Source of the DNA: Bacteroidales bacterium | GTDB lineage: Bacteria; Bacteroidota; Bacteroidia; Bacteroidales; F082 | Length of the DNA: 64,000 nucleotides | Assembly (NCBI GenBank): GCA_017549805.1 | Contig: JAFYNJ010000015.1 | Location: forward strand, 18,568-82,567 | Direction of reading: 5' to 3' | Shown here: positions 444 to 28,965 of the stretch, in pieces | How the letters are laid out: each line of letters begins with the position of its first letter | Position numbering within the stretch: position 1 is the stretch's first letter | Translations under genes and position numbers: made by a program | Notes under the pieces: model-generated | The model's database searches: none | Told to the model about the DNA's origin: nothing | The model's input: the letters and a program-made list of their open reading frames with translations, nothing else

Positions 444-803
444 ATGATCGAACTGAATGAAAATTTCACCGTTGCCGATCTCGCCAACGTGAAGAAAGAG
501 GTCTTCGACCCCATGTTTAACAAAACCCGTGCTTCCTCTTGGAACGGACACATGTACATCACCCCTGACAAGATGTATTACATTGTAGAGCCTGCAGGCT
601 TGGAAGGCAAAACCGTTTGGGATATGGGCGGTGCTCCGAAGTCGTGGTGCATCGACTTGAGCGAAATCGCGTCATACGGCAAGTATGGCTTGGGCGGTTT
701 CAAGATTGAATTGAAAGACGGAACAACGCTCCGCTTCACCAACGTGTTCCGCAAGATGCGCAACGGCATCACGGAAGCCCTTGAGGAGAGAATGGGAAAG
801 TGA
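444..803 (+). CDS. small hypothetical cytoplasmic protein (119 aa)
   Basis: No family is recognised. The protein has no signal peptide or membrane segment. It alternates short beta-type stretches (MYITPDKMYYIV, GFKIELKDGTTLRFTNVF) with a final amphipathic helix, which suggests a small PH/GRAM-like beta barrel capped by a helix; that is inference from the pattern only. It follows the antiporter by 20 bases on the same strand. Its stop codon is the first element of a 7-base-period repeat hairpin (802-878) that separates it from the convergent deaminase gene. Normal codon use supports it being a real gene. Confidence 0.7.
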   Translation: MIELNENFTVADLANVKKEVFDPMFNKTRASSWNGHMYITPDKMYYIVEPAGLEGKTVWDMGGAPKSWCIDLSEIASYGKYGLGGFKIELKDGTTLRFTNVFRKMRNGITEALEERMGK

Positions 804-878
804 AACGGAAAACGGAAAGTGGAAAACGGAAAACTATCAATTCTCAGTTTTCCGTTTTCAGTTTTCAGTTCTCCGTTT
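802..878. repeat. heptad-repeat hairpin between convergent genes
   Basis: The left arm (802-834) is built of 7-base units related to GAAAACG. The right arm (847-878) is built of units related to GTTTTCC/GTTTTCA and is nearly the reverse complement of the left, with a 12-base loop. The hairpin overlaps the stop codons of both flanking convergent genes (TGA at 801-803, minus-strand TAA at 877-879). It could act as a bidirectional terminator or mRNA 3'-end stabiliser, although it lacks a pure T-run. Confidence 0.7.
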
Positions 879-1905
879 ATTTCTGTCCTGCGTATTGCTG
901 TACCTCGTCGTATTTATAGACGAGTTCGATGCCCACTTGCTTGAACATCTCTTCCGACTCGGCGCCGTCGTGGTAGCGGCGTTCGCATACCACACGCACG
1001 ATGCCGCAGTTGATGATGAGCATGGCGCAGGTGCGGCAGGGAGTCATGCGGCAATACAGCGTGCTGCCATCCAAGGCGATGCCCCTGCGGGCAGCCTGGC
1101 AGATGGCGTTCTGCTCGGCATGTACCGTGCGGACGCAGTGTTGTGTTACGGAGCCGTCCTCGTGGATGACCTTGCGGAAGAGGTGTCCCACGTCGTCGCA
1201 ATGGGGAAGCCCTTTGGGTGAGCCTACATAGCCCGTCACCAAGATTTGTTTGTCCTTGACGATGACGCAGCCGCTACGGCCACGGTCGCAGGTGGCACGT
1301 TCACTCACCGTGTCGGCGAGGTTCAGGAAATAGTCGTCCCAGGTGGGGCGGACATGCAGCTGGGTAAGGACCTTCTCCACTTGCTGGTGCAGCTCGGGGA
1401 TGGTGCCGTCGTTGGTGAATACGAAGTCGGCTTGGTGGATGCATTCGCCGAGGTTCTGCTTGTTGGGGTCGGTGGCGGTCATCTCGCGTTCTTCATTGGC
1501 CACGAAGGTCTCGAAGTCGATATGGTCGGTCTCTGAGCCGCGCAGGTAGATGCGGTCGTAACGGATCTTGCGGTCGGCATCGACGGCGAAGAGGTAGAAC
1601 TCGCCTTTTTGGCGCAACGAGGCAATCTCGCCAGGCGTGCGTACACTCTCGATGACGGCGTTCTTGCCATTGGCCTTGGCCCGCTCGAAGAGCTGGTCGG
1701 TGATATAGCTCGGACAATGCGTTGCGCGCAGCTCGTTGCCCATGGCGGTCAGCGTGTCGCGGTTCACTTCCTCTCCGCGTTTCTCAATCTCTTCCGTGAT
1801 GAAGGCCCGCACCGAATAGTGCACGAAACCTCTTTCCTTAACCAAGTAATCGACGATGGTGCCTTTCCCAGCTCCCAGCGTCCCAGTTATACCAATAATA
1901 ATCAT
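877..1905 (-). CDS. P-loop kinase-like / deoxycytidylate deaminase fusion protein
   Basis: The 342-residue protein has two parts. Residues 1-~185 are a nucleotide-kinase-like P-loop domain (GTLGAGKGT at 8-16) of the dephospho-CoA/NMP kinase type. Residues ~190-342 are a zinc-dependent dCMP deaminase, with HAE at 262-264 and PCRTC at 289-293 forming the catalytic zinc site, plus extra Cys/His (CDRGRSG, LPHCDD, HC before HAE) as in the ComEB/dCMP deaminase family. The expected reaction is dCMP to dUMP, feeding dTMP synthesis. Yeast Dcd1 and the antiphage deaminase DcdV/AvcD also put a P-loop domain ahead of a deaminase, but DcdV is longer. It lies 33 bases after a LOG-type gene on the same strand, so the two are probably one transcript. 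The role of the P-loop half is unknown. Confidence 0.85.
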   Translation of the reverse strand: MIIIGITGTLGAGKGTIVDYLVKERGFVHYSVRAFITEEIEKRGEEVNRDTLTAMGNELRATHCPSYITDQLFERAKANGKNAVIESVRTPGEIASLRQKGEFYLFAVDADRKIRYDRIYLRGSETDHIDFETFVANEEREMTATDPNKQNLGECIHQADFVFTNDGTIPELHQQVEKVLTQLHVRPTWDDYFLNLADTVSERATCDRGRSGCVIVKDKQILVTGYVGSPKGLPHCDDVGHLFRKVIHEDGSVTQHCVRTVHAEQNAICQAARRGIALDGSTLYCRMTPCRTCAMLIINCGIVRVVCERRYHDGAESEEMFKQVGIELVYKYDEVQQYAGQK

Positions 1906-1907
1906 AT

Positions 1908-1958
1908 CTCTAAACTTTAAACTCTAAACTCTAAACTCTCACCTTTCACCTTTCACCT
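1908..1958. repeat. heptad repeat, two unit types in phase
   Basis: On the plus strand this reads as four TCTAAAC-type units (one TTTAAAC), followed without a phase break by TCTCACC and TTTCACC units. The repeat lies between two minus-strand genes and encodes the last residues and stop codon (QVKGER*) of the upstream gene. Confidence 0.75.
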
Positions 1959-2538
1959 GTTCCTTAATCTCCACCACCCATTTCTTCACATCAGTTGGCT
2001 GGAACCGTTCCATCATTTCAAGCAATTCCTTTGGATTGTCGCTGACGATGAGGTTGTAGGCGTGTTCTTTGCGGATGAAGCCTTCCTTGGCGGCATGGTC
2101 GATGAAGCGGATGATGTCGTCGTAAAAGCCGTTCACGTTGTAGAGGGCCACGGGTTTGTCGAAGACCCGCAGCTGGCTGAGCACAAAGGCCTCGAAGAAT
2201 TCGTCCATGGTGCCCAGTCCGCCTGGCATGGCAATGAAGCCGTCTGCCATGTCTTCCAAAATCTTCTTGCGTTCAGCCATCGAATCCACCACAATCAGCT
2301 CGTCAATGTCGTTATAGCCCACTTCCATGTCCATGAGGTGCTCGGTGATGGTGCCGATGACCTTGCATTTCCGGTCCATCATCACATCGGCGATGATTTT
2401 CATCAGCCCCACACTGCCACCGCCGTACAATAGCTCGCACTGCTTGTCGGCCATGGCTTGACCGAGTTCAGCGGCTTTCTCGCGATAAATAGGGTCGAAG
2501 CCCATGCTGCTGCCGCAAAAAATGCAGATTTTCTTCAT
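1939..2538 (-). CDS. LOG-family protein / cytokinin riboside 5'-monophosphate phosphoribohydrolase-like (TIGR00730)
   Basis: The 199-residue Rossmann-fold protein carries the family motif PGGLGTMDE (PGGxGTxxE) and the N-terminal CIFCGSSMG and GGGSVGLM nucleotide-binding segments. Members of the lysine-decarboxylase-like LOG family actually cleave nucleoside 5'-monophosphates such as AMP to base and ribose 5-phosphate. It is complete, of usual length, cytoplasmic, and driven by a TACTTTTG promoter 14 bases upstream of the start. The dCMP deaminase fusion follows, so both genes of this transcript act on nucleotides. The C-terminal tail EQVKGER is encoded by the adjacent 7-base repeat and so is unlikely to be functionally conserved. 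Confidence 0.88.
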   Translation of the reverse strand: MKKICIFCGSSMGFDPIYREKAAELGQAMADKQCELLYGGGSVGLMKIIADVMMDRKCKVIGTITEHLMDMEVGYNDIDELIVVDSMAERKKILEDMADGFIAMPGGLGTMDEFFEAFVLSQLRVFDKPVALYNVNGFYDDIIRFIDHAAKEGFIRKEHAYNLIVSDNPKELLEMMERFQPTDVKKWVVEIKEQVKGER

Positions 2539-2552
2539 TCGTTAATTTTTTG

Positions 2553-5183: not shown

Positions 5184-5203
5184 TCGGAGCTGTTGTTTCA
5201 TTG

Positions 5204-5261
5204 CAAAGGTAAACACTTTTATCTTTTATCTCTTATCTTTTACCTTTTTATCTTATCTTTG
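5204..5261. promoter_or_regulatory. divergent promoters separated by a heptad repeat
   Basis: The minus-strand -7 element TACCTTTG (5204-5211) serves the M20 gene. The plus-strand -7 element TATCTTTG (5254-5261) serves manA. The intervening 5216-5260 is an imperfect run of 7-base TTTTATC/TTTTACC units whose last copy merges into the manA -7 element. Confidence 0.7.
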
Positions 5262-5284: not shown

Positions 5285-6271
5285 ATGTCAACCGTACTTT
5301 ACCCACTGAAATTCAAGCCCATCTTCAAGGATAAGATCTGGGGCGGACGCAAGATCAAGGAAGTGCTTGGGGTGGACTATGGTCCGCTGCCCAACTGTGG
5401 TGAGGCTTGGCTGCTCTCGGGTCTCTGGGACGAACAAAGTGTGATTGCCAACGGCGACTTCGAAGGCGATGAGATCAACGATCTCGTGGAGACCTTCATG
5501 GGCGACCTCGTGGGCGAAGGGGTGTTCGACAAATACGGCGAACAGTTTCCGCTGCTCATCAAGATCATCGATGCCAACGATTGGCTCTCGGTGCAGGTGC
5601 ATCCTGACGATGAGCTGGCCGAGAAGCGTGAGATCGGCAACGGCAAGACCGAGATGTGGTATGTGATGCAAGCCGACCGGGGTGCCGAGCTCGTTTCGGG
5701 TTTCAACTGCGAGATGAATCGCATGAAATACATCCGCGTGCTCAAGGACAATGCCATCGAATCGGTGCTGAATCATGAGACGGCCGAAAAGGGCGATGTG
5801 TTCTACATCCCCGCCGGACGCGTCCATGCGCTCGGTCCTGGCATCATGGTGGCAGAGATCCAGCAGACCAGCGACACCACCTACCGCATCTACGACTGGG
5901 ACCGCATCGACCTGGCCGGCATGCGCCGCGAGTTGCACATCCCACAGTCGCTGGATGCCGTCGATTTTGATCCTGTCGAGAACTACAAGTCGCCTTATGA
6001 GGATGTCATAAACAAGACCGTCCCCGTGGTGGATTCACCCTATTTCACCACCAACCTGCTGCATCTCAACGGCGAGATGGCCAAGGACTATTCGGAGCTC
6101 GATTCCTTTGTGCTGTTGATGCCCGTTGAAGGAAAATTTTTGCTTGAATGGGAAAATGGCTCGGTATTTGTTAATACGGGTGAAGTTGTCTTGATCCCAA
6201 ATGTCATCGAAAAGGTGAACATCAAGGCACAGGGCGACTGCAAACTCCTTGAAGTTTATAACGATATTTAA
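5285..6271 (+). CDS. manA: mannose-6-phosphate isomerase, class I
   Basis: This cupin-type zinc isomerase interconverts mannose 6-phosphate and fructose 6-phosphate, supplying GDP-mannose and fucose for surface glycans. The zinc and substrate motifs are clear: SVQVHPDDELA, GKTEMWYVM, and YIPAGRVHALGPG. Its 328 residues match the short (Bacillus-type) class I enzymes rather than the longer enterobacterial ManA. The start at 5285 lies 24 bases after a TATCTTTG -7 element. The C-terminal cupin domain (EGKFLLEWENGSVFVNTGE) is intact. A 7-base AT-rich repeat follows the stop, before the TlpA gene. Confidence 0.93.
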   Translation: MSTVLYPLKFKPIFKDKIWGGRKIKEVLGVDYGPLPNCGEAWLLSGLWDEQSVIANGDFEGDEINDLVETFMGDLVGEGVFDKYGEQFPLLIKIIDANDWLSVQVHPDDELAEKREIGNGKTEMWYVMQADRGAELVSGFNCEMNRMKYIRVLKDNAIESVLNHETAEKGDVFYIPAGRVHALGPGIMVAEIQQTSDTTYRIYDWDRIDLAGMRRELHIPQSLDAVDFDPVENYKSPYEDVINKTVPVVDSPYFTTNLLHLNGEMAKDYSELDSFVLLMPVEGKFLLEWENGSVFVNTGEVVLIPNVIEKVNIKAQGDCKLLEVYNDI

Positions 6272-6303
6272 TTGATAATTAATAATTTAGAATTAATAAT
6301 ACT
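6269..6303. repeat. heptad repeat (ATTAATA type)
   Basis: An AT-rich run with 7-base period (ATTAATA, ATTTAGA, ATTAATA) spans the manA stop codon and the spacer before the TlpA-like gene. It also creates a spurious upstream ATG in frame with that gene. Confidence 0.55.
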
Positions 6304-6307
6304 GAAA

Positions 6308-6802
6308 ATGAAAAAGCTATTCACTCTCTTATTCGCTGTGCTGATGATTACAGGTGTTCAGGCCCAGCAGAAATCGGACCTTCCGAATGTTACCATCAAG
6401 AATTTGCAAGGCAAGGATGTCAACATCGCCAAGCTGTCGAACAATGGCAAGCCTTTCGTGATCACCTTCTGGGCCACCTGGTGCGGTCCATGCATCAAGG
6501 AACACAATGCCTTGGACGAGGTTTATGCCGACTGGAAGGCTGAAACTGGCGTGAAGATCTATTCCGTCTCAATCGACGACTCACGTTCCACTGCCAAGGT
6601 GAAGCCTTTCGTCGAGGGCAAGGGCTGGGATTTCGAAGTCCTGCTGGATGTCAACAAGGATCTGGCTCGCGCCATGAACGTGAACAACCCGCCCTATACC
6701 TTCCTGTTTGATGGCAATGGTAAGTTGGTCTATCAGCATTCGGGCTATTTCGAAGGCGCAGAGAACGATCTTTACGAGGAAATCCTAAAGATAAAGAAGT
6801 AA
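6308..6802 (+). CDS. secreted TlpA-like thioredoxin
   Basis: The protein is 164 residues with a Sec signal (MKKLFTLLFAVLMITGVQAQ) and a thioredoxin fold carrying the redox motif WCGPC in FWATWCGPCIKEHNAL. Its overall pattern (LQGKDVNIAKLS, YTFLFDGNGKLVYQHSGY) is that of TlpA/ResA periplasmic thiol reductases. An in-frame ATG at 6272 is rejected because it lies in a repeat and would bury the signal peptide; the start is 6308. It is followed by a DUF6029 barrel and an Omp28-like lipoprotein with its own CxxC, which suggests thiol-redox maintenance of secreted or outer-membrane proteins. That link is inferred from context. Confidence 0.9.
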   Translation: MKKLFTLLFAVLMITGVQAQQKSDLPNVTIKNLQGKDVNIAKLSNNGKPFVITFWATWCGPCIKEHNALDEVYADWKAETGVKIYSVSIDDSRSTAKVKPFVEGKGWDFEVLLDVNKDLARAMNVNNPPYTFLFDGNGKLVYQHSGYFEGAENDLYEEILKIKK

Positions 6803-6832
6803 GAGGTCAGGAGACAGAAGATAGAAGCAATA
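6803..6832. repeat. heptad repeat (AGGTCAG/AAGATAG type)
   Basis: Right after the TlpA stop codon is a degenerate run of 7-base units (AGGTCAG, GAGACAG, AAGATAG, AAGCAA), ending just before the DUF6029 start at 6835. Confidence 0.5.
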
Positions 6833-8584: not shown

Positions 8585-9385
8585 ATGAACAAGATATTCT
8601 CAATGATTGCCATGGCAGCCGTGATGCTTTTTGCCATGGGCTGCGATAAAATCGATAATCCTCATAAGCCTTACACGCCTTCGGGTGGCAACAAGACCGT
8701 GCTGATTAAGGATTTCACGGGTGCCCGTTGCGTCAACTGTCCCGCCGCCGCTGCAACGGCCCATGAACTGCAGCACCAGCTGGGCGAGGACAGAGTGTTC
8801 GTCATGAGTGTCCATGCCGGTTACCTGGCCCAGCCTATCGGCAAGTTCCCCGATTTCACCACTCCCGAGGGAACCGTTTGGTATAACGACAATTCGGCCA
8901 ACCCCTTGTTTAGCGTCGACCATGTGGCGCTGACCGAGGGCAATACCTTGAACGAATCGCAACTCGACACGCCTGTCAGCGATGCCTTGGCTGAACCGCA
9001 GTTGTTCGACATCGTCATCAACAACACCTATAACGAGCTTACCCGCAGTTTGAGTGTGGAAAACCGCTTCAACCCCACTGGCGACGGTCAGGGTGAGTAT
9101 TACGCCACCGTCTGCCTGTTGGAGGACAGCATCGTCGGTCGTCAGGTGATTCCTGGCGGCGTCGATACGGCATACGTTTTCCGCAATGTGTTCCGGGGCA
9201 CCTTGAATGGCGCCGACGGTGAATTGGTTTCGAACGGTGCCTTCTATGTGGACGATTCCTTCACGACGACTTGCGGTATCGAGCTTGATACCACCTTTAA
9301 CGCCGACCAGTGCTACGTCTTGACCTATATCTATGACAAGATCGACGGCAAGATCCTGCAGACGGCCATGAGGAAGGTCAGGTGA
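8585..9385 (+). CDS. Omp28-related outer-membrane lipoprotein
   Basis: The protein has a signal peptide with a lipobox (LFAMGCDK), so it is a predicted lipoprotein of ~266 residues. The segment KTVLIKDFTGARCVNCPAAA is the hallmark of Omp28-like proteins of Porphyromonas and relatives; it resembles a thioredoxin active-site region with CVNC. The rest is beta-rich. It is the last gene of the TlpA-DUF6029-Omp28 cluster. The family is known as surface-exposed in P. gingivalis with adhesin-like suggestions; a redox role is plausible from the CxxC but unproven. The gene ends at a heptad repeat shared with the convergent trmO. Confidence 0.85.
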   Translation: MNKIFSMIAMAAVMLFAMGCDKIDNPHKPYTPSGGNKTVLIKDFTGARCVNCPAAAATAHELQHQLGEDRVFVMSVHAGYLAQPIGKFPDFTTPEGTVWYNDNSANPLFSVDHVALTEGNTLNESQLDTPVSDALAEPQLFDIVINNTYNELTRSLSVENRFNPTGDGQGEYYATVCLLEDSIVGRQVIPGGVDTAYVFRNVFRGTLNGADGELVSNGAFYVDDSFTTTCGIELDTTFNADQCYVLTYIYDKIDGKILQTAMRKVR

Positions 9386-9420
9386 TAGTTTAGAGTTTAG
9401 GGTTTAGAGTTTAGAGTTGT
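9386..9420. repeat. heptad repeat (TTTAGAG type) between convergent genes
   Basis: Four tandem 7-base units (TTTAGAG, TTTAGGG, TTTAGAG, TTTAGAG) follow the Omp28-like stop. The minus-strand stop codon and last residues (NSKP*) of trmO are encoded inside the repeat. Confidence 0.75.
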
Positions 9421-10801: not shown

Positions 10802-11212
10802 ATGAAAAAAATATTCGTCTTATTGATAATGATGTTCGCTGTGGCGTTGGTCCCGGCGAAGGCACAAATTGGTGGAATTATCGGAAGAGCCGTCCAAAAA
10901 GGTGTTGAAAAAGCCGTCCAGAAAGAAGCGGACAAACAGGCAGAGAAAATCTCTCAGACGATCGAAAACGAAATAGAGAAGGCGGCTGAAAAGCAGGCAG
11001 CCAAGCTCGATTCCATCAACCAGGCGGCCAAAGAGGCCAACGATGCCTTGAATGAGGAGCAGGAACGTCTCGAAGCTGAGCAGGAAGCTGCCAAGGACAA
11101 GAACGCTGGCAAGAAAGGCTCGGGAACTGTTGACACTTCGAAATACGATGCCATCAATGCCGAACGCAAGGCAGCGAATGCCAAACTCAATTACGATAGA
11201 TGGGATTATTAA
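10802..11212 (+). CDS. small secreted coiled-coil protein (136 aa)
   Basis: A signal peptide (MKKIFVLLIMMFAVALVPAKAQ) precedes a Gly-rich segment IGGIIGRAVQKG. Residues ~40-110 are a long charged helix rich in Lys, Glu, Ala and Gln with heptad-like spacing, probably a coiled coil. The tail is SKYDAINAERKAANAKLNYDRWDY. No family is recognised. It could be a periplasmic or surface spacer protein. Its stop codon shares the tetranucleotide TTAA (11209-11212) with the stop of the convergent aspartate kinase gene. Confidence 0.65.
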   Translation: MKKIFVLLIMMFAVALVPAKAQIGGIIGRAVQKGVEKAVQKEADKQAEKISQTIENEIEKAAEKQAAKLDSINQAAKEANDALNEEQERLEAEQEAAKDKNAGKKGSGTVDTSKYDAINAERKAANAKLNYDRWDY

Positions 11213-12498
11213 CTGCCAACTACAAACTGTAAAGTGCTTCTGCTACTCTGTTTCAGATACACTTTCTTTCCCTTGAGGAACTCATCGCCTATGGTATAGG
11301 CGTTGTCGTAATGGCGAATGGTAAACAAGGTCAAGCCTTGGTTGTATTTAACTTGGAAGGTCTCGCGGAGCGATCCGACGAGGCCTTTTAGTTTGCGCTC
11401 GTCATGGTCGAAGCAGAACGAGAGCATCAAGGCGGAGGTTTGGATTACGTTGGCATGGATGCCCCATTCGTCGCAGGCTGCGAAGATGAGCTGCAGGTTG
11501 TGCTCGTTCATGAACGAATAGTCGCGAGGCGAGATGGACACCAGCGTCTGCTTGTCCTTGACGATGTATGACGGCACTTTTCCGATGCTCCGATCGGCTT
11601 TGCTGTCAATGATGGAGGGCGTGTGCTCGGGATGGAGGAACGACTGTACCTTGAGCGTGATGTTCTTGTTTTGCAGCGGCTTGATGGTCTTGGGGTGGAT
11701 GATGGAGGCGCCGTAGAAGGCCAGCTCGATGGCTTCGGAGTAGGTAATGTGCGGTAGCTGGACCGTCTGCTCGAAGCGTTTCGGGTCGGCATTGAGCAGC
11801 CCGTCCACGTCCTTCCAGATGGTGACCTCCTCGGCGTCGAGGCAGTTGGCGAAGATGGCGGCGGTGTAGTCGGAACCTTCGCGGCCCAGGGTGACGCTGT
11901 GCTTGCCATCGACGGTGGCCCCGATGAAGCCTTGGGTGATGCACACGATGCCGTGGATGTGCTCGTCGTTGAGCTTGGAAATCCTTAGTCTTGTCTCATC
12001 CCAGTCGGGCGAAGCCGCGCGGAAGCGGTCGTCGGTCAACACGTATTTCCTGGCATCCAGCCAGCGGCAGGGGACGTCGCAATGGTTGAGGTATTCCTGA
12101 ATGATGGTGGTAGAGATGAGCTCGCCGTAGCTCACCGTCTGGTCATACTGGTAGTCGTAGGGCTGGTCGGTGTTTTGGAGTTTTTCCCAAAGCTCGATGA
12201 ACAGCTCCGACACTGATTCGATGACGGGATGCTCGTGGTTTTGGTCGAACAAATCCAAGATAATCTTTTCGTGATAGCTCATCACTTCGTTGAGCGCGTC
12301 GATGCCTAACTCGCCATCATGCTCGCGGAAGTCGTTGAGCGCTTTTTCCAGCATGTTGGTGGTCTTGCCCATGGCCGACACCACTAGGAAGATGTCCTCA
12401 TCTTTGTGTTGCGCCACAATATTCTTGAGATTGCGGACAGCGTCGGCATCCTTTACCGAGGCACCTCCGAATTTATAGATTTTCTTGATCATGGTCAT
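11209..12498 (-). CDS. lysC: aspartate kinase (monofunctional)
   Basis: The N-terminal KFGGASV is the aspartokinase signature, followed by SAMGKTTNML, GREGSDYTAA for the ATP/aspartate site, and ACT regulatory domains toward the C-terminus (ISPRDYSFMNEHNLQLIF). The enzyme phosphorylates aspartate, the first step to lysine/diaminopimelate, threonine and methionine. It has no homoserine dehydrogenase domain, unlike ThrA of many Bacteroides. The open frame extends to 12555, but a TAAATTTG -7 element at 12513-12520 places the start at 12498 (MTMIKKIYKFGG) or 12492. The last residues (STLQFVVGS) are encoded by a short heptad repeat. Confidence 0.9.
   Translation of the reverse strand: MTMIKKIYKFGGASVKDADAVRNLKNIVAQHKDEDIFLVVSAMGKTTNMLEKALNDFREHDGELGIDALNEVMSYHEKIILDLFDQNHEHPVIESVSELFIELWEKLQNTDQPYDYQYDQTVSYGELISTTIIQEYLNHCDVPCRWLDARKYVLTDDRFRAASPDWDETRLRISKLNDEHIHGIVCITQGFIGATVDGKHSVTLGREGSDYTAAIFANCLDAEEVTIWKDVDGLLNADPKRFEQTVQLPHITYSEAIELAFYGASIIHPKTIKPLQNKNITLKVQSFLHPEHTPSIIDSKADRSIGKVPSYIVKDKQTLVSISPRDYSFMNEHNLQLIFAACDEWGIHANVIQTSALMLSFCFDHDERKLKGLVGSLRETFQVKYNQGLTLFTIRHYDNAYTIGDEFLKGKKVYLKQSSRSTLQFVVGS
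11210..11236. repeat. short heptad repeat (AACTGCC/AACTACA/AACTGTA)
   Basis: Three or four 7-base units follow the shared TTAA stop and form the 3' coding end of the aspartate kinase gene. Confidence 0.5.
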
Positions 12499-16035: not shown

Positions 16036-16070
16036 ATCACTCTAAACTCTAAACATTAAACTTTAAACTA
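16036..16070. repeat. heptad repeat (TCTAAAC type) between POT genes
   Basis: Four in-phase 7-base units (TCTAAAC, TCTAAAC, ATTAAAC, TTTAAAC) fill the spacer and end two bases before the ATG of the second transporter. This is the same unit type as at 1908-1935 and, on the opposite strand, 9386-9420. Confidence 0.7.
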
Positions 16071-19536: not shown

Positions 19537-20022
19537 ATGTCAAGAAACGAACAAGAACTGAAAGGCGTTACATTGCTGGGAAACCAGAATACCCAGTATC
19601 GTTACGATTACACGCCCGAGGTGCTGGAGACCTTTGAAAACAAGCATCCCGAGAACGACTATCTGGTGACGCTGGACTGTCCGGAGTTCACCTCGCTGTG
19701 CCCCAAGACGGGCCAACCCGACTTTGGACACATCATCATCAACTATATTCCGCGCACATTGATGGTGGAGAGCAAGAGCCTGAAACTTTATCTTTTTAGT
19801 TTCCGCAACCATGGCGACTTCCACGAAGATTGTGTGAACATCATCATGAAGGACTTGGTCAAGCTGATGGATCCTAAATACCTGGAGGTCATTGGCCTGT
19901 TCAATCCCCGTGGAGGTATTTCAATAAAGCCTTTTGCCAACTACGGCGATAAGGAACATCAAGACATGGTGAAACAACGTTTAATTGAACAACTGAATAA
20001 CTCCCAACTTCAAACTAAATGA
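19537..20022 (+). CDS. queF: NADPH-dependent 7-cyano-7-deazaguanine reductase QueF
   Basis: The short (YkvM-like, single-domain) QueF reduces the nitrile of preQ0 to the amine of preQ1. Visible motifs are [14 protein letters not shown], with the catalytic Cys and Asp, [20 protein letters not shown], with the substrate/NADPH residues, and GGISIKPF. It has 161 residues from the ATG at 19537; an upstream frame start at 19489 lies before the promoter and is rejected. The stop overlaps the queC start (ATGA). The last residues (SQLQTK) come from a heptad-like AACTTCA repeat. It is the first gene of the queF-C-D-E operon, although QueF acts last. Confidence 0.95.
19985..20021. repeat. degenerate heptad repeat inside the queF 3' end
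   Basis: AACTGAA, TAACTCC, CAACTTC and AAACTAA units with 7-base period encode the queF C-terminal residues and run up to the ATGA overlap with queC. Confidence 0.45.
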
Positions 20023-20678
20023 AGGATGCAGTAATCATCATATCCGGAGGCATGGATTCCACCACCATGTTGTATGAATACCAAGATGAGATTGCCTTGG
20101 CCATTACCTTCGACTATGGCTCCACTCAGAATGGTCGTGAGCGTATCTGTGCCATCACGCATTGCCAACGATTGGGCATCAAGCACATTGTCATCCCGCT
20201 GGAATTCATGCATCGCTATTTCAAGAGTGCTTTGTTGGGTGATCCCGAAGATATTCCGGAAGGTAATTATGATGATGAGAGTATGAAATCAACGGTGGTA
20301 CCTTTTCGCAACGGCATTATGTTGGCCATTGCCGCGGGTATCGCCGAGAGCAACGGTTTGAAACGGGTGATGATTGCCAACCATGCCGGTGACCATTCCA
20401 TCTATCCCGACTGTCGTCCAAGCTTTGTCAATGCGATGTCGGAAGCCATGTCGGCAGGGACGTATGAGAATATCACGGTGTGGGCACCCTACACTTATCT
20501 AAGCAAAAAGGAAATCGCCGAGCATGGAAAAGCCTTGGGCCTGGACTATAGCGAGACTTATTCCTGCTATAAAGGTGGCGAGAAGCATTGCGGTAAATGT
20601 GGTACCTGCCGCGAACGCATCCAAGCCCTGAAGGACGCAGGCATTGTGGATACCACTGAATATGAAACGGAAAACTGA
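20019..20678 (+). CDS. queC: 7-cyano-7-deazaguanine synthase QueC
   Basis: This PP-loop ATPase converts 7-carboxy-7-deazaguanine to preQ0 with ammonia and ATP. The N-terminal [12 protein letters not shown] is the PP-loop (SGGxDS). The C-terminal [18 protein letters not shown] supplies the four zinc-binding Cys. Its 219 residues match the family. The start overlaps the queF stop by four bases. The stop codon and last residues (ETEN*) are encoded within a heptad repeat of GAAAACT units. Confidence 0.96.
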
Positions 20679-20712
20679 AAACTGAACAACTGACTAACTT
20701 CCAACTGAACAA
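20662..20712. repeat. heptad repeat (GAAAACT/CAACTGA type) between queC and queD
   Basis: GAAACG, GAAAACT, GAAAACT and then looser GAACAACT-like units run from the queC stop to the queD ATG. Confidence 0.6.
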
Positions 20713-21640: not shown

Positions 21641-22380
21641 CCTCTCTGTCTTCTGAATTCTGTCTTCTGACTTCTATAAACAAGAAACACCGCCGGTTTC
21701 TTGTTCAGATCCCCTTTGAACGACTTCCACTCCCCGATGCTTTGGCTGACGATGAGCTCGTCGTCGCAGGTGAGGTTGCACGCGACGCAGAGCAGGGTGG
21801 AGGGGTGCAGGTTCTTGCACAGGTCCTGCAACATGGCGTTGTTGCGGAAAGGCGTCTCGATGAAGAGCTCTGTCTCGTTGTTGGCTGCCGACCTGCGTTC
21901 CAAGTCCTTGATGGCGTTTTGCCGTTCGGGGCTCTTGATGGGTAGGTAGCCGTGGAAAGCGAAGGCCTGTCCGTTGAACCCCGAGGCCATCAAGGCTAAG
22001 ATCATGGCGTTGGGGCCCACCAACGGGATGACTTGGATGCCGGCCGAGTGGGCCAGATCGACCACTAAGGCTCCTGGGTCGGCCACGCAAGGCGTTCCGG
22101 CTTCCGACATCAAGCCCATGTCTTCTCCGTTGAGGCAGGCACCGAGGTGTTCCATCAGGTCGAGGTTATGGGCATTGTGCTTGTCAAGCTCGATGAACTC
22201 GATCTCGTCGATGGCACAATCCATGCCGATGCGGCTCAGCACGCGGCGTGAGGTTCGGGTGTTCTCCACCACGAAATGCTTCAACTTCTTGATGATGGTC
22301 AAAGTGCCTTCAGGCAGCACCTGCTCGGGCTTTGTCGCTCCCAACAGATTGGGTACCAGATAGAGTTTTCCGAAAGGCAT
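21637..22380 (-). CDS. RsmI-like SAM-dependent (tetrapyrrole methylase fold) methyltransferase
   Basis: The protein is 247 residues with the RsmI-type pattern KLYLVPNLLG, GLMSEAGTPCVADPG and PLVGPNAMILALMASGF, and a late FIETPFRN. RsmI 2'-O-methylates C1402 of 16S rRNA. This protein is shorter than E. coli RsmI and lacks its C-terminal helical domain, as in many Bacteroidota, which often carry two such genes. I therefore keep the call to RsmI-like. Its tail QKTEFRRQRG is encoded by the adjacent heptad repeat. The start is 7 bases downstream of the dnaA stop on the same strand. Confidence 0.82.
   Translation of the reverse strand: MPFGKLYLVPNLLGATKPEQVLPEGTLTIIKKLKHFVVENTRTSRRVLSRIGMDCAIDEIEFIELDKHNAHNLDLMEHLGACLNGEDMGLMSEAGTPCVADPGALVVDLAHSAGIQVIPLVGPNAMILALMASGFNGQAFAFHGYLPIKSPERQNAIKDLERRSAANNETELFIETPFRNNAMLQDLCKNLHPSTLLCVACNLTCDDELIVSQSIGEWKSFKGDLNKKPAVFLVYRSQKTEFRRQRG
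21641..21681. repeat. heptad repeat (TCTGTCT/TCTGAAT type)
   Basis: Five 7-base units (TCTGTCT, TCTGAAT, TCTGTCT, TCTGACT, TCTATAA) begin right after the queE stop. On the minus strand they encode the C-terminal residues QKTEFRRQRG of the RsmI-like protein. Confidence 0.7.
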
Positions 22381-24581: not shown

Positions 24582-25450
24582 GGCTTCACGGTTATTAATA
24601 CTACTGCGATGATGGCGATGACCAGGCCGAGGTAGTTTATCCAAGTGAGTTTCTCCTTGAACAGGAGCCATCCAGCCAAAGCGGTGAGGCAAACGACGCC
24701 GATATTATAGACGGGAAACAGCACCACGTTGTCGAACACTCGCATGGCTTGATACACCGAGTAGGTGGAAAAGAAATTGACCACGCCAAGGACAACACCC
24801 CCCGAGGCGTTCTTCCACTGCCATTTAGACTTGCCCTTGATGAGATCGTAACCCATGAGCAGGAGGCTGAACACGAACGAAACGCCGTAGATGAAAGCAA
24901 CCATGAAGGTGGGGTCGTTCTCGTGGCCGTTGGCGGTCTCTGTGATCTTCATCAAGACATCGCCGATGCCGGTGCTGAAGAATATCAAGATGGGCAATAA
25001 GACGATGAGGGTCGTTTTTTCGGTCTTGGCTTGGTTCTTATCCTTCCCACCCAATACCAAAAACAAGGCGGTCAGGGCTAAAACGATGCCAGTGGCAGGC
25101 ATCAATCCAAGGGCTTCCTTTAGGAAAATTACACCGAACAAGGTGGGGATGACCACGGAGAGCTTGCTCGACAGCGAAGTGACGGTGACCCCTGAACGCT
25201 GGCTGGAAACGACCATCAATACATAGGTCAGGATGAACCAGAAACCAGTCAGGATGGAGAGCGGGAACCAAGGCTCCGACACGGGAGAAGCGACAGTTCC
25301 GTTGGCAGCGCTCATTGCAAATCCGATTGCCGTGGCTGTGGCATAGTTCCACATCAAGGCCTGATGGTTGTCGAGGTTGAAGCGGCTGAAAAGCCTCATG
25401 GCCACGAAGATGGCGCTCGAAAACAGGATAGCGAGAATCAAGTATATCAT
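24578..25450 (-). CDS. EamA/DMT-superfamily transporter
   Basis: The integral membrane protein of about 290 residues has ten predicted helices in two EamA-like repeats. The first repeat ends PTLFGVIFLKEALG and the second ends LAGWLLFKEKLTWINYLG, the usual family markers. It is probably an exporter or permease of small metabolites; the substrate is unknown. A start at 25459 would fall in the -7 element (25457-25464), so ATG 25450 is chosen. Its stop overlaps the start of the IMPACT gene. Confidence 0.87.
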   Translation of the reverse strand: MIYLILAILFSSAIFVAMRLFSRFNLDNHQALMWNYATATAIGFAMSAANGTVASPVSEPWFPLSILTGFWFILTYVLMVVSSQRSGVTVTSLSSKLSVVIPTLFGVIFLKEALGLMPATGIVLALTALFLVLGGKDKNQAKTEKTTLIVLLPILIFFSTGIGDVLMKITETANGHENDPTFMVAFIYGVSFVFSLLLMGYDLIKGKSKWQWKNASGGVVLGVVNFFSTYSVYQAMRVFDNVVLFPVYNIGVVCLTALAGWLLFKEKLTWINYLGLVIAIIAVVLITVKP

Positions 25451-25456
25451 AATCTG

Positions 25457-25506
25457 CAAAGATAAAAATTTTAGAAGTCAGTAGTCAGAAGAAAGAAGTA
25501 TTTTTG
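25457..25506. promoter_or_regulatory. divergent promoters with a heptad repeat between
   Basis: The minus-strand -7 element TATCTTTG (25457-25464) serves the EamA gene. The plus-strand TATTTTTG (25499-25506) serves prmC, ending only 4 bases before its ATG. Between them, ~25472-25500 is a 7-base-period run AGAAGTC, AGTAGTC, AGAAGAA, AGAAGTA. Confidence 0.6.
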
Positions 25507-25510: not shown

Positions 25511-26374
25511 ATGATTGGTTTTAATCTGAACAAGGCAAAACGGCATTTTACGGAGGAACTGGGCAGAGGTTTCACACAGCGTGAGGCGGAGCAGTTGATG
25601 CGCATCTTGCTGGAGGACCTCTTTGATATCGACCAAAAGCGTCAGTTGATGGAGCCGAAACTGCGTATCGACGAGCTTCAGTATGCCCAGTTGGAACAAG
25701 CCGTCAAGCAGCTGCTGGAGGGTGTTCCCGTGCAGTATGTCACGGGCAGGGCTTGGTTCGACGGACTGCTTCTCCATGTGGACGAGTCGGTGCTGATCCC
25801 AAGGCCCGAGACGGAGGAGTTGGTGCAAAAGATCTCGGAGGTTTTGCCGAACGATAGACCTATCAGGATATGGGACATCGGCACGGGGTCGGGGTGCATC
25901 GCCGTGGCCTTGGCAAAGCGTTTCCCTTTGGCCGAGGTGAAGGCGTTTGACGTCTCAGCACAGGCCTTGGCTACGGCTTCGCGCAATGCGGAATACAATA
26001 AGGTGCAGGTGGAATTCGTGTGCGACGATGTACTGCATCCCCAATCGGAAAGTTGGCTGCATCCTGTGGATTTGGTGGTGAGCAACCCGCCTTACATTCG
26101 AGAAAGCGAAAAGGCAGCCATGGAACGTAACGTCTTGGAACATGAACCGCATTCGGCGCTTTTTGTTCCCGATGACGACCCGTTGCTGTTTTACCGGCAG
26201 ATACTAAAACTTGCCAAACCCCAACTGCATCCCGATGGGGCGGTTTGGTTCGAAATCAATGAAGCCATGGGAGAGGCGATGCTCCAATTGGCTCGGGAAA
26301 TGGGTTTCGAGGCTGTCCTTCATGAGGACTATTTAGGGAAACCTCGCTTCGCGTCATTTACAAACTTTCTTTGA
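25511..26374 (+). CDS. prmC: peptide chain release factor N5-glutamine methyltransferase PrmC
   Basis: This enzyme methylates the Gln of the GGQ motif in RF1 and RF2. It has an N-terminal helical domain (FTQREAEQLMRILLEDLF), motif I IWDIGTGSGCIAVALAK and the catalytic VSNPPYIRESE. Its 287 residues match the family. The -7 element sits so close to the ATG that the transcript may be leaderless or nearly so. Its 3' end overlaps the convergent subtilase gene by 21 bases. Confidence 0.94.
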   Translation: MIGFNLNKAKRHFTEELGRGFTQREAEQLMRILLEDLFDIDQKRQLMEPKLRIDELQYAQLEQAVKQLLEGVPVQYVTGRAWFDGLLLHVDESVLIPRPETEELVQKISEVLPNDRPIRIWDIGTGSGCIAVALAKRFPLAEVKAFDVSAQALATASRNAEYNKVQVEFVCDDVLHPQSESWLHPVDLVVSNPPYIRESEKAAMERNVLEHEPHSALFVPDDDPLLFYRQILKLAKPQLHPDGAVWFEINEAMGEAMLQLAREMGFEAVLHEDYLGKPRFASFTNFL

Positions 26375-28885
26375 GACCATCCCGTCGTCGGTTAGCAAAT
26401 TGACGACATAGATACCTTTCGGGAGTCGCTCGAGAATCGACAGGGAGTTGTCTGTGTCAGTAAAGCCTTCGTAAACCACCTGTCCAAGGGTGTTGATGAT
26501 GCTGATGCGTTGGATGCCGTCTGGCACCTTGTTTTCGTCAACGGCCATCACGGTCTTGTCGAGGCAGTCCGACCAGGCGATGTTTGCGCCGCCATCGTTG
26601 CTGATGCCGTATTTGTACTGGCCGATGGGAAGCGCATCCCAACCATAGTCCACATAGTGTGCCTCGGCTACCTCGGTGGCAATCAATTCGGGCGCATTGC
26701 CCGTGCAGTTGTCGCGATACACGTTGAAGGGGTTGCCAACGGTAATATCGTCGATATAGAAAGCGTTCTCGTAGTCGCCTTCAGAGAGTTGGTTGATATA
26801 CTTCCATTCAAGTTGATGGTTGCCGGGGCTAAGCGTGAACGAGTATTGCGTCCAGGGTACCTCGTCCTTGATGGTTTCGCCTTGCTGCATATTGTCGATG
26901 AGGAACCCACCGCCATTGAGAGGAAAGCAACTGATGCGAGCTTCATAACTAATGACGCAGGTGACAGGGACATTGACACCCAAGGTCAGGCTGCTGGAGG
27001 AAAACATGCCAGTGTTGGTTGACTTGGCGCAATACATGCCTTCATAAGGATTGTTGGTGGTTGTTATCCAAGGGCTGGAGGCATCATTAAACCACATGTT
27101 CTGATAAAAATCACCCGACTCGAAGCCGTCAACGATGCTGTTGGGCATGTTCCATGAAAGGTTCACCCTCTGGTTGTTGATGACCTCGGCTTCAATCTCG
27201 ATATCCTTCCTGACAAAAACGTAATTGGAAGGCAAGGTGGTGAGTCCGTTATCGAGGACAGCCGTCACATAATAGGTGTAGTTGCCTCCGTAGTTCAGAT
27301 GGTCGGTATGGGTTGTTGTGGTAATGTTGTTGGCGATGCGCAAGCCGTCGCGATACACCTCATAAGAGGTGGCAGTGGCAGGGGCTTCCCAGCTCAAGTC
27401 AACATTTTCTCCATCAAAAGCGGCGGTAAGGTTGGCGGGGCCGTGGTAGAAAAGGGCATTGACGGCGGCCAACGCGTCGATGCGGCCTGATCCGGTGCTA
27501 TTGTTTTTATTGTAGTTGCCGATCTTTGTGGCGGTAAGTTCGATGATGGAATCAATCTCGGCGGGACATAAGTTGGGTTCAGCTTCCAAGAGCAGGGCCA
27601 TCACACCGGCAACGCAGGGTGTTGCCATCGAGGTGCCGTCATGAGTGTCGTAGGCGGTGTTGCCAGGAAAACCAAGTGAGGTGATGTTGGCACCTGGTGC
27701 CGAGATGTCGGGACGGATCAAACCGGGCATGTCGGGGTTGCCGACCTCGTAGGGATAGTCGCTGTATTCGCCGATGTTGGCGCCTTCAGCCCAAGTCACA
27801 GGCCCTACTGACGAGAAACCGCTGTGCTTATCGGTGGCATCGGTGGCACCGACACATACCACGGCGGTGTGACCTCCATGGAGTGTTTGGTCGGGATGGA
27901 ACCAAGGTGGAGGACAGTTGCCGGGTGCTTCGACATTGAAAGGTTTCGGATAGGTGTATTGTTGGTCGCCGACGTTGCCTGCGGCTACCGCAGCCACCAC
28001 TCCGGCATCCAAAACAGTCTCATACAACTGACGATAAAGAGCGTAGCCACCTGTCTCGGGGTCGCCGAAAGAACAACTTAATATGTCGGCGTCATGAGTC
28101 AGAGCAAACTCAATGCCTTCGATAATCTGCGCGTCGCCGCCATAGCCGGTTTCATCCATGATTTTCACCGCCATGATCTTGGCACCTGGCGCGATACCTG
28201 TTTGAGTGCCGGCATTACCTTGTCCAGCCACTATGCCGGCACAATGTGTGCCGTGCATATAGTCATCCATGGGGTCGTTGTCATGGTTGACGACATCATA
28301 GCCGTGGTGAGGAAACTCTGGACCTCCATCCCACATGCTATTTACGATGTCAATGTGATTGTAATTCACGCCAGTGTCGAGGATGGCCACGATGACGCCA
28401 TTGCCAGTGTAGCCAGTTGATCCGTTGTAGTTCCACACAGCAGGCGCATTTACCTTTTCCACATGCCAAGCCATTTCTTTCGATTCGATGGGTTGGGTTT
28501 CGCCAAGCTCGGGAAGCATGCGACGGAGCTCGTCATGGTAAACATAGGCCACATCGCGGCGTGCCTCCAGTTGGTGGATGGCTTCGTCGGTGGCCATGCA
28601 AGCAAAGCCGTTGATAGCCCAGAAAGGATTGACGGCCTGTACCTCATTTGCCATACCGTCCACAAACTGCAGCACTTCTTGCTGCGAAGCTTGGCAGAAA
28701 GCCTTGTGGTCGCCGATCACAAAGTCGCGCCGTTGAGTCTTGTCCATGAATTGGGTCTTGCGGGCCATGCCCACCTCGTCGTATTGCTCGGCCATTACGA
28801 CGATGACATGCCGGAGCTCTTTGTTTTGCCCGAATGTGAAGCTAAAACAGAGAGCGAAATACAGTAAAAGGGTCGTTTTTTTCAT
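26354..28885 (-). CDS. secreted subtilisin-like serine protease (S8) with T9SS sorting domain
   Basis: The signal peptide starts at 28885 (MKKTTLLLYFALCFSFTFGQ); an upstream frame ATG at 28921 precedes the promoter. After a propeptide, the S8 domain shows the triad ILDTGVNYNH (Asp ~170), HGTHCAGIVAG (His ~211) and DGTSMATPCVAGVMALL (Ser ~419). A fibronectin-III-like domain (LSWEAPATATSYEVYRDG) and a MAM/carbohydrate-binding-like region (~residues 610-750) follow. The last ~70 residues end with KGIYVVNLLTDDG and a KVCK tail, typical of type IX secretion. It is expected on the cell surface, degrading proteins and feeding peptide uptake. Length 843 aa. Confidence 0.92.
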   Translation of the reverse strand: MKKTTLLLYFALCFSFTFGQNKELRHVIVVMAEQYDEVGMARKTQFMDKTQRRDFVIGDHKAFCQASQQEVLQFVDGMANEVQAVNPFWAINGFACMATDEAIHQLEARRDVAYVYHDELRRMLPELGETQPIESKEMAWHVEKVNAPAVWNYNGSTGYTGNGVIVAILDTGVNYNHIDIVNSMWDGGPEFPHHGYDVVNHDNDPMDDYMHGTHCAGIVAGQGNAGTQTGIAPGAKIMAVKIMDETGYGGDAQIIEGIEFALTHDADILSCSFGDPETGGYALYRQLYETVLDAGVVAAVAAGNVGDQQYTYPKPFNVEAPGNCPPPWFHPDQTLHGGHTAVVCVGATDATDKHSGFSSVGPVTWAEGANIGEYSDYPYEVGNPDMPGLIRPDISAPGANITSLGFPGNTAYDTHDGTSMATPCVAGVMALLLEAEPNLCPAEIDSIIELTATKIGNYNKNNSTGSGRIDALAAVNALFYHGPANLTAAFDGENVDLSWEAPATATSYEVYRDGLRIANNITTTTHTDHLNYGGNYTYYVTAVLDNGLTTLPSNYVFVRKDIEIEAEVINNQRVNLSWNMPNSIVDGFESGDFYQNMWFNDASSPWITTTNNPYEGMYCAKSTNTGMFSSSSLTLGVNVPVTCVISYEARISCFPLNGGGFLIDNMQQGETIKDEVPWTQYSFTLSPGNHQLEWKYINQLSEGDYENAFYIDDITVGNPFNVYRDNCTGNAPELIATEVAEAHYVDYGWDALPIGQYKYGISNDGGANIAWSDCLDKTVMAVDENKVPDGIQRISIINTLGQVVYEGFTDTDNSLSILERLPKGIYVVNLLTDDGMVSKKVCK

Positions 28886-28905
28886 GATTGCTTTGAAATG
28901 TAGCG

Positions 28906-28913
28906 CAAAAATA
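28906..28913 (-). promoter_or_regulatory. -7 element of the subtilase gene
   Basis: Minus-strand TATTTTTG, 21 bases upstream of the subtilase ATG at 28885. Confidence 0.65.
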
Positions 28914-28918
28914 AGAAA

Positions 28919-28965
28919 CACCTTTCAATTTTCACCTTTCAATTTTCATTTTTTCCCTATTTTTG
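28919..28965 (+). promoter_or_regulatory. heptad repeat and RNase P RNA promoter
   Basis: TTTCAAT, TTTCACC, TTTCAAT and TTTCATT units (7-base period) run directly into TATTTTTG (28958-28965), the -7 element of rnpB, whose RNA begins near 28971. Confidence 0.65.

What the first reader, a model, noticed from the sequence alone, without database searches (positions are those of the whole stretch)
801..28960. Dispersed intergenic repeats with a strict 7-base period but locus-specific units
At about 13 places (802-878, 1908-1958, 5216-5260, 6269-6303, 6803-6832, 9386-9420, 11210-11236, 16036-16070, 19985-20021, 20662-20712, 21641-21681, 25472-25500, 28919-28957) short gene-edge segments are built from degenerate 7-mers. 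The unit differs by site (TCTAAAC, TTTCACC, TTTTATC, GAAAACT, TCTGTCT, AGAAGTC...), and some units recur, also in reverse complement. Period 7 is kept even where two unit types join (1908-1958). Heptanucleotide STRR repeats are known in heterocystous cyanobacteria; I know of no description for Bacteroidales. Slippage, a templated origin or a regulatory role could explain them. All clear cases lie in the first 29 kb.
Basis: seen in the sequence. Interest (0 to 1): 0.72.

Follow-up and report, generated by a model that had tools for sequence, protein, structure and literature searches.

The report
Seven-base repeats overwriting bacterial gene ends
This uncultured rumen bacterium carries a large set of short 7-base tandem repeats that sit at the stop codons of genes, and even in frame inside essential enzymes, drawn from a few families that seem to be copied from place to place and are replaced quickly between sister species.

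Summary
Twelve of the 13 sites are periodic at lag 7 beyond chance. In 858 kb of this 2.73 Mb genome there are 115 lag-7 arrays, against 0-13 for each other period from 4 to 15 except 14 and 0-1 in Markov copies. The units are not locus-specific: they fall into about six families, and in one family unlinked arrays share the order of unit variants more than shuffled units do, which points to copying. Arrays cluster at stop codons, avoid divergent spacers, favour purine-rich sense, and pair as purine...pyrimidine hairpins. New here: they also lie in frame inside housekeeping genes (SufS, IleRS, GltD-like and others), at places that sister species fill with other units, with unrelated dispersed repeats, or leave short. 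Heptamer arrays are patchy across Bacteroidales (179 of 393 genomes). Xanthomonas GGGAATC arrays share the anatomy and TAACTGA arrays were reported in Bacteroidetes, so the kind is known; the multi-family, gene-invading form is a new variant. Best reading: 7-base slippage plus short-patch, microhomology-guided copying into tolerant sites.

The parts
803..877 (.). Purine array (AAACGGA) followed by pyrimidine array (TCCGTTT/TCAGTTT) between convergent genes 444-803(+) and 877-1905(-); long hairpin
   Evidence: lag-7 score 32.8, p 0.001; RNA fold z -5.75
1908..1958 (.). TCTAAAC array joined in phase to TTTCACC array; overlaps the C-terminal codons and stop of 1939-2538(-), upstream of 877-1905(-)
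   Evidence: lag-7 score 33.0, p 0.001
5216..5260 (.). TTTTATC array in the spacer between 4053-5216(-) and 5285-6271(+) (divergent)
   Evidence: p 0.003; AGATAAA family also at unlinked loci
6269..6303 (.). TAATTGA/TAATTAA array starting at the stop of 5285-6271(+)
   Evidence: p 0.001
6794..6832 (.). AGAAGNN-type array over the stop of 6272-6802(+)
   Evidence: p 0.01 for 6803-6832; member of the AGAAG family
9380..9420 (.). AGTTTAG array covering both stops of the convergent pair 8585-9385(+) / 9397-10077(-)
   Evidence: p 0.001 for 9386-9420
11210..11236 (.). Short AACTGCC/AACTACA array forming the C-terminus and stop of the aspartokinase-like gene 11209-12498(-)
   Evidence: p 0.018; C-terminal variation among relatives
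16036..16070 (.). TCTAAAC array filling the whole spacer between two POT transporter genes
   Evidence: p 0.001; other units and/or a hairpin in relatives
19985..20022 (.). AACTGAA/AACTCCC mixed 7/8-base array forming the QueF C-terminus and overlapping the QueC start
   Evidence: p 0.053; orthologous spacers in 15 distinct relatives
20662..20712 (.). AAACTGA/AACTGAC array between QueC and the next gene
   Evidence: p 0.005; by eye an array in 12 of 14 relatives, units differ
21641..21681 (.). TCTGTCT/TCTGAAT array at the stops of the convergent pair 21053-21640(+) / 21637-22380(-)
   Evidence: p 0.002
25472..25500 (.). AGAAGTC array between divergent genes 24578-25459(-) and 25511-26374(+)
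   Evidence: p 0.014
28919..28957 (.). TTTCACC/TTTTCAA array between the start of 26354-28921(-) and the RNase P RNA at 28971(+)
   Evidence: p 0.025; RNase P match
11209..12498 (-). Aspartokinase-like gene (PF00696): no array inside in this genome, but two relatives (G022, G010) carry an in-frame purine...pyrimidine heptamer hairpin at residues about 57-75
   Evidence: 2 of 26 aligned rows; Pfam

Best explanation
These are dispersed heptamer arrays that behave like selfish or neutral sequence 'patches'. Arrays lengthen, shorten and homogenise in 7-base steps, presumably by replication slippage (inferred). New sites are colonised when a short single-stranded stretch of an existing array, often with its hairpin partner, is copied into another locus through a few bases of microhomology (template switching or short-patch illegitimate recombination; inferred), replacing resident bases. 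Copies survive only where they do no harm: at stop codons, in short co-directional and convergent spacers, and in permissive loops or linkers of proteins, where they must stay in frame and free of stops. The same permissive sites are reused by other dispersed repeats. Hairpin pairs may act secondarily as terminators between convergent genes (inferred). Shown: period, families, positions, in-frame inserts, turnover between species, shared variant order in one family. Inferred: the enzymatic route and why the step is 7.
For: Strict period 7 in three genomes. About six related unit families reused at unlinked loci. In the AGAAG family (28 arrays; family chosen after its sharing was seen) 7 pairs of unlinked arrays share 26 bases or more, against a shuffled-unit mean of 0.83 and maximum of 4 in 300; that 26-mer with up to 1 mismatch occurs in 6 of 30 genus genomes. 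Arrays that begin at a stop match its last two bases more often than with random stops: 60% vs 26% (30 arrays, G000) and 60% vs 33% (35 arrays, G022). Spacers with arrays: co-directional 60 of 302, convergent 15 of 53, divergent 3 of 106; G022 60 of 230, 14 of 48, 5 of 77. In-frame arrays inside nine genes that match Pfam families, all nine that were scanned; SufS loop in 27 genomes: 9 heptamer (2 of them mixed), 6 other repeats, 12 short (by eye); of 60 in-frame indels of 5 aa or more in 213 orthologue pairs, 10 are periodic and 9 of these have period 7. One 7-base copy difference inside an array between close species.
Against: No copying event was caught between strains. Homologous exchange of alleles between species could mimic repeated invasion (near-identical SufS inserts in G003 and G020, which are not sisters). 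In the IleRS loop the resident codons already resemble the unit (AAGTTGAAAG), so growth in place is possible there. Over all 135 arrays the variant-order excess is modest (44 pairs sharing 24 bases or more, null mean 28, maximum 35 in 12 shuffles) and at 28 bases or more it lies within the null range (12 pairs, null maximum 17). A match of the stop's last base alone is hardly above expectation in G022 (86% vs 79%). Among indels between nine related loci only 2 of 158 are 7 bases long and only one of these is in an array, with no excess of multiples of 7. Three of the 13 window sites (5216, 25472, 28919) are not at a stop. 50 of the 60 coding indels show no periodicity. Nothing tested explains why the step is 7.
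Confidence: 0.5

Rival explanations
1. Pure local slippage: chance 7-base near-duplications, common at stop codons, grow in place by polymerase slippage because a 7-base loop fits the polymerase; units resemble each other only because starting sequences (stop codons, purine-rich tails) resemble each other.
For: 7-base copy difference between L056 and L057; heptamers over-represented in many bacteria, with a polymerase-footprint idea (Mrazek as cited in PMC4679880, and PMC4692102); resident AGTTTGT next to stops and AAGTTGAAAG in the IleRS loop look like seeds.
Against: Shared variant order between unlinked arrays of the AGAAG family; coding loops replaced by sequence with no visible seed in relatives (SufS, GltD-1, IleRS-2); matched purine and pyrimidine arms.
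Confidence: 0.25
2. Functional 3'-end elements: arrays act at RNA level as terminators, RNA-stability hairpins or translation spacers, and selection keeps the 7-base register.
For: Anchoring at stops, 2:1 purine-sense bias, opposite neighbouring pairs almost only purine-then-pyrimidine (24 against 1), stable hairpin at 795-885.
Against: Both orientations occur; the same spacer holds different units, other repeats or no spacer in sister species; arrays inside essential proteins; only 60 of 302 co-directional and 15 of 53 convergent spacers have one.
Confidence: 0.15
3. Mobile palindromes moved by an enzyme (REP/RAYT-like Y1 transposase or a telomerase-like reverse transcriptase templating 7-base repeats).
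For: Hairpin pairs; one Y1 transposase and two reverse-transcriptase matches, best to the groups UG26 and UG39 (the second from a 61-residue piece), in the genome. RT_UG26 carriers have (AACTNNN)4 arrays slightly more often, 7 of 11 against 172 of 382.
Against: The Y1 gene is followed by its own unrelated palindromes (read by eye); 172 of the 179 genomes with (AACTNNN)4 arrays lack RT_UG26 at E 1e-60; six unit families would need six templates. UG39 and other RTs were not surveyed.
Confidence: 0.07
4. Assembly or binning artefact of a metagenome-assembled genome.
For: Genome is a draft with 7.6% contamination; SufS appears identically in two contigs (C8, C30).
Against: Arrays are short (18-75 bases, median 34), occur between intact genes, and recur in many separately assembled genomes.
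Confidence: 0.02

Closest known systems
GGGAATC heptamer arrays of Xanthomonas (PMC4692102; section 10 and passages read)
   Same: 7-base arrays at 183-186 places per genome, closer to the upstream gene's end, inverted pairs, few between divergent genes, 7-11% at least partly inside genes, length and sequence variation between two related species
   Different: One G-rich quadruplex-forming unit there, and most arrays lie between the same genes in both species; here about six A/G-rich families, shared variant order in one of them, and in-frame inserts in housekeeping enzymes compared across species
TAACTGA heptamers of Beggiatoaceae, Cyanobacteria and five Bacteroidetes (PMC4679880; abstract, introduction and sections 10-12 read, passages elsewhere)
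   Same: Intergenic heptamer direct repeats; AACTGA-type units also here (QueF-QueC spacers); mixed heptamers in Microcystis
   Different: There one unit, mostly just upstream of starts in forward orientation and read as a possible translational signal; here arrays are anchored at stops, in both orientations, with many units
STRR heptamers of heterocystous cyanobacteria (recalled; Calothrix heptamers are mentioned in a passage of PMC4692102)
   Same: Several heptamer units in one genome
   Different: Unit sequences; no invasion of genes known to me
Rickettsia palindromic elements (PMC10969869; passages seen)
   Same: Dispersed palindromes inserted in frame in metabolic genes
   Different: Families of about 150 bases there; here short heptamer arrays, single or paired
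Short-patch double illegitimate recombination (recalled; the abbreviation occurs once each in three papers of the listing, none opened)
   Same: Short replacement of resident bases by ectopic DNA through microhomology
   Different: Known from mutation experiments; not tested here

Membership tests
Bacterial heptanucleotide tandem arrays (long simple sequence repeats) | Tandem copies with period 7 in excess over other periods | tested here: met
   115 vs 0-13 in 858 kb; 12 of 13 window sites; Markov copies 0-1
Bacterial heptanucleotide tandem arrays (long simple sequence repeats) | Copy number changes in 7-base steps | tested here: inconclusive
   One clean 7-base difference inside an array (L056/L057), no general excess of 7-base indels; no strain series
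Xanthomonas-type GGGAATC arrays | G-tract units able to form G-quadruplexes | tested here: not met
   GGG occurs in 12 of 135 arrays on the purine strand
Xanthomonas-type GGGAATC arrays | Near the end of the upstream gene, inverted pairs, few in divergent spacers | tested here: met
   compared
TAACTGA start-codon repeats | Forward orientation just upstream of start codons | tested here: not met
   No enrichment within 6 bases of downstream starts (46% vs 51% random in G000, 27% vs 36% in G022)
REP/RAYT palindromes | Conserved palindrome next to a Y1 transposase | tested here: not met
   The one Y1 gene found is followed by a different palindrome, not by heptamer arrays (by eye)
Telomerase-like or DRT-templated repeats | Co-occurrence with a particular reverse transcriptase | tested here: not met
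   RT_UG26 in 11 of 393 genomes, (AACTNNN)4 arrays in 179 of 393, both in 7; UG39 and other RTs not surveyed
Rickettsia palindromic elements | In-frame insertion in protein genes | tested here: met
   SufS, IleRS, GltD-like and aspartokinase-like comparisons
Rickettsia palindromic elements | Sequence of a known RPE family of about 150 bases | not tested
   RPE sequences were not compared; arrays here are 18-75 bases

The most novel reading that the evidence does not exclude
The genome runs a continuous 'overwriting' process: short patches of heptamer arrays and other dispersed repeats are copied by microhomology over any site that tolerates it, so that stop codons, C-terminal tails and loops of essential enzymes are rewritten from a shared, clade-specific vocabulary and replaced again within a few species divergences. 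Repeats would then be a main source of protein loop variation in this genus, and the mechanism may be general wherever heptamer arrays abound in Bacteroidales.
Probability: 0.35. Interest if true: 0.8.

Novelty: new variant of a known kind. Interest (0 to 1): 0.62.

Why it matters
Why heptamers are over-represented among longer simple repeats in many bacteria has been left as a slippage guess in the papers read here. This genus offers many species, several unit families with readable variant order, and arrays inside conserved coding sequence where the array-free state is known. Copying, slippage and selection can be told apart there. It also warns annotators: C-termini and loops in such genomes (peptides such as LSTLNSQ or TENGERR) can be repeat DNA, not protein family signal.

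Tried and rejected
Sequence-specific regulator or start-codon signal: rejected because orientation is mixed and starts are not enriched. Independent random seeds: rejected for the AGAAG family by variant order, not shown for the others. Reverse transcriptase UG26 as the general cause: no clear co-distribution. RAYT: the Y1 gene has its own palindrome. G-quadruplex reading: GGG in only 12 of 135 arrays. Foreign-island explanation for the array-free 29-64 kb: not supported, the ten proteins scanned there include gyrase B, IMPDH, FtsH and RF3, and GC is even. In one search the shuffle control had been run only at the lowest score; the zeros printed at higher scores were not computed, so the control was redone. 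The first indel script gave no output and was repeated with default options. My own gene caller (hexamer log-odds) stands in for a standard one; start codons are approximate. Random placement cannot overlap a gene while real arrays can, which helps the stop figure; the start figure has the same leniency and is not enriched. In one search an array between convergent genes can count once for each stop. Loop states in SufS, IleRS, GltD and aspartokinase were assigned by eye; my labels for the last three loci were shifted (L337 is a second G021 match, not G019), so its 26 rows come from 25 genomes. The tree (24 genomes) leaves the loops out but was built from SufS and IleRS themselves; support for some branches is low (0.19 for G000 with G004). 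In one search two row pairs are the same sequence (L059/L138, L054/L139) and were counted once. In one search L200 repeats L173 and was dropped. The arrays were chosen by their own rule (periodic right after the stop, not before it), not as a subset. In one search two of the nine period-7 indels belong to one insertion.
Full report
What was checked. The window is G000:C16:18568-82567 of a 2.73 Mb draft genome whose closest named relatives are uncultured Bacteroidales, mostly from ruminants. Of the 13 listed sites, 12 are periodic at lag 7 beyond shuffles of their own composition; the 13th (19985-20021) is marginal because it mixes 7- and 8-base steps. TRF lists a period-7 array at 9 of the 13. 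In a sample of 794 kb plus the window, lag-7 segments number 115, against 13 at lag 8, 7 at lag 12 and 0-5 at the others from 4 to 15 except the harmonic 14, with 73; five first-order Markov copies of the same 858 kb gave 0 or 1. Relative G022 has 118 in 687 kb (other periods 2-10, lag 14: 80) and the more distant G011 27 in 339 kb (others 0-8, lag 14: 10).

Units. The 107 arrays of the first census fall, by eye, into about six families on the purine strand: AGTTGAG/AGTTTAG, AGGTGAR, AGATAAR, AGAAGNN with AGAATTY, AACGGAR/AACTGAR/AGCTGAR and AGTKRGG. They are not private to a locus. For the AGAAG family, whose units vary enough to be informative and which I picked after seeing its sharing, 7 pairs of unlinked arrays share 26 bases or more in the same unit order, against a mean of 0.83 and a maximum of 4 in 300 unit shuffles (28 arrays). 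Over all 135 arrays the excess is smaller: 44 pairs at 24 bases or more against a mean of 28 and maximum of 35 in 12 shuffles, and no excess beyond the null range at 28 bases or more (12 pairs, null maximum 17). The 26-mer AGAAGTCAGAAGACAGAAGTAAGAAG with up to one mismatch occurs in 6 of 30 genus genomes, with 10 matches in G000 and 17 (14 places) in G010, and in none of the other 24. On the tree the five of these six that it includes form one clade; the sixth, G008, is not on it. Arrays of this family therefore share ancestry across loci; independent slippage from random seeds does not give this.

Position. Arrays occupy 60 of 302 co-directional, 15 of 53 convergent and 3 of 106 divergent spacers of 20-600 bases in G000, and 60 of 230, 14 of 48 and 5 of 77 in G022. 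In co-directional spacers 80% (G000) and 69% (G022) lie within 6 bases of, or over, the upstream stop, against 52% and 35% for random placement, with no enrichment at the downstream start. The purine strand is the sense strand in 41 of 61 and 45 of 64. Of 31 neighbouring array pairs within 150 bases, 24 run purine then pyrimidine, 1 the other way and 6 are of one type; the first kind gives hairpins such as window 795-885 (z -5.75). Of 88 array-stop pairs in G000, 50 have the array beginning at or before the first base of the stop, so that the array itself forms the stop and often C-terminal codons, and 23 begin one or two bases before the stop's end. Arrays that begin at a stop match its last two bases in 60% of cases in both genomes, against 26% and 33% with random stops, as expected if joining uses microhomology. 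In the window itself three sites (5216, 25472, 28919) are not at a stop.

Arrays inside genes. In G000 34 of 135 arrays lie more than 90% in called coding sequence, some of them at C-termini. Nine of the genes holding internal arrays were scanned and all nine matched Pfam families: a TRCF (Mfd) protein, a GltD-like oxidoreductase, isoleucyl-tRNA synthetase, a biotin carboxylase, an APH/RapZ-C protein, a Mur ligase, an S41 peptidase, a SufS-type aminotransferase and LptF/G. The reading frame is kept; typical peptides are LSTLNSQLST and ENGERRTENGE. In PDB alignments the SufS array and both IleRS arrays fall at gaps between conserved blocks; in some of the others, such as the biotin carboxylase and the APH/RapZ-C protein, the array lies in the linker between two matched domains.

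Comparison across the genus. SufS was found in 27 of 30 genomes: the same loop holds a heptamer array in 9 (two mixed with other sequence), another dispersed repeat in 6 and the short form in 12 (by eye). The hairpin insert of G022 and G008 is built of AACGGAA...TTCCGTT and that of G010, at the same place, of AGTGGAA...TTCCACT: both arms changed together. In IleRS loop 1 (25 rows) 4 carry heptamers, 8 a GGCTGCCACA...TGACAGCC palindrome, 10 the long loop and 3 short forms; in loop 2 (23 rows) 4 carry heptamers of three families, 2 other inserts and 17 none; in the GltD-like gene G000, G004 and G022 share the insert site but not the units (3 of 10 rows). In the window's own aspartokinase-like gene the array is absent, but G022 and G010 have an in-frame purine...pyrimidine insert (2 of 26 rows), and the gene's C-terminus ends in different short heptamer tails in several species. 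On a tree that leaves these loops out, heptamer presence needs at least 7 changes in SufS (23 genomes) and 4 each in the IleRS loops (24 and 23 genomes). Counting every loop state, the minimum is 12 changes in SufS (12.6 with shuffled labels) and 6 in IleRS loop 2 (5.9 shuffled), so there is no sign of inheritance, but 6 in IleRS loop 1 (12.0 shuffled), where the palindrome is inherited by a clade. Allele exchange between species could inflate these numbers. Without choosing genes beforehand, 213 orthologue pairs between G000 and G022 hold 60 in-frame indels of 5 residues or more; 50 show no periodicity, 9 have period 7 (two of them parts of one insertion) and 1 has period 6.

Spacers turn over as fast. 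Before QueC, 8 of 15 distinct relatives have heptamer-type arrays (several with 8-base steps), 5 have a bare ATGA overlap and 2 have other inserts; before the next gene 12 of 14 have arrays, with units such as AACTGAN, TTCTGAC or TTCTCAA (by eye). One pair of close species (L056, L057) differs by exactly one 7-base copy within an array, but in nine aligned loci 7-base indels are not in excess (2 of 158).

Distribution. The pattern (AACTNNN)4 occurs in 179 of 393 Bacteroidales genomes (117 of 206 genera), from none to more than 200 matches per genome, with different units per lineage in the matches listed; the reversed control pattern is also common in some genomes, so other heptamers behave alike. 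Across 66 other Bacteroidales loci (1.22 Mb) period 7 leads the periods that are not multiples of 3 (22, against 10 at lag 8 and 2-6 at 4, 5, 10, 11 and 13). Loci L051-L061 of relatives with 90-96% identical POT have fewer 7s (7 in 180 kb) and more 9s and 8s (21 and 9), so the step is not 7 everywhere.

Mechanism. Slippage in 7-base steps is needed for the period and is seen once directly. Copying between loci is needed for shared variant order and for replacement of loop sequence by unrelated arrays. Microhomology at stops, replacement without length change (the SufS loop of G000 has the same length as the short form) and reuse of the same loops by unrelated repeats fit short-patch template switching filtered by selection. 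The window holds a ComEC-like gene (58045-60156), so DNA uptake could supply donor strands; this is only a lead. Why 7 remains open; the polymerase-footprint idea of Mrazek is cited in PMC4679880 and PMC4692102.

Known relatives. The GGGAATC arrays of Xanthomonas match many anatomical points: upstream-gene proximity, inverted pairs, few in divergent spacers, 7-11% at least partly intragenic, and length and sequence variation between two species, although most lie between the same genes in both (PMC4692102). MacGregor's TAACTGA study covers five Bacteroidetes (PMC4679880). In-frame palindromes are known from Rickettsia (PMC10969869). Searches for such repeats in Bacteroidetes or Bacteroidales, for the encoded peptides and for insertions in coding sequence listed no paper recognisable as a description of this pattern, judged from titles and abstract starts (in the held library only). 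The kind is known; the multi-family, gene-invading form with evidence of copying is a new variant.

Noticed in passing
L059, L054, L057, L052 (QueF-QueC and neighbouring spacers): Palindromic spacer elements 100-190 bases long built of degenerate 9-base repeats (ACGAATTAC..., ACAAAACCG...); period 9 outnumbers period 7 in loci L051-L061 (21 against 7).
   Followed up: partly
L174, L175, L187 (SufS loop); L052, L137 (spacer before QueC): REP-like element GTCATTGCGAGG...GCAATCC found both in spacers and in frame in the SufS loop.
   Followed up: partly
L205-L207, L209, L212, L213, L222, L223 (IleRS loop 1): The palindrome GGCTGCCACA...TGACAGCC, like one in POT-QueF spacers, sits in frame in IleRS of 8 species.
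   Followed up: partly
G000:C8:27493-28704 and G000:C30:70952-72163: SufS is present identically on two contigs: probable redundant contig in the draft genome (contamination 7.6%).
   Followed up: no
L307:1100-2400: Single Y1 transposase gene followed by repeated palindromes GGGCATCCGCC...GGCGGATGC with GCTAGC: looks like a RAYT with its REPs.
   Followed up: partly
L305, L306: Two reverse-transcriptase matches, best to the defence groups UG26 and UG39 (the second from a 61-residue piece).
   Followed up: partly
window 29000-64000: No heptamer arrays in 35 kb holding core genes (gyrase B, IMPDH, FtsH, RF3, ComEC-like); 135 arrays per 858 kb would predict five or six.
   Followed up: partly
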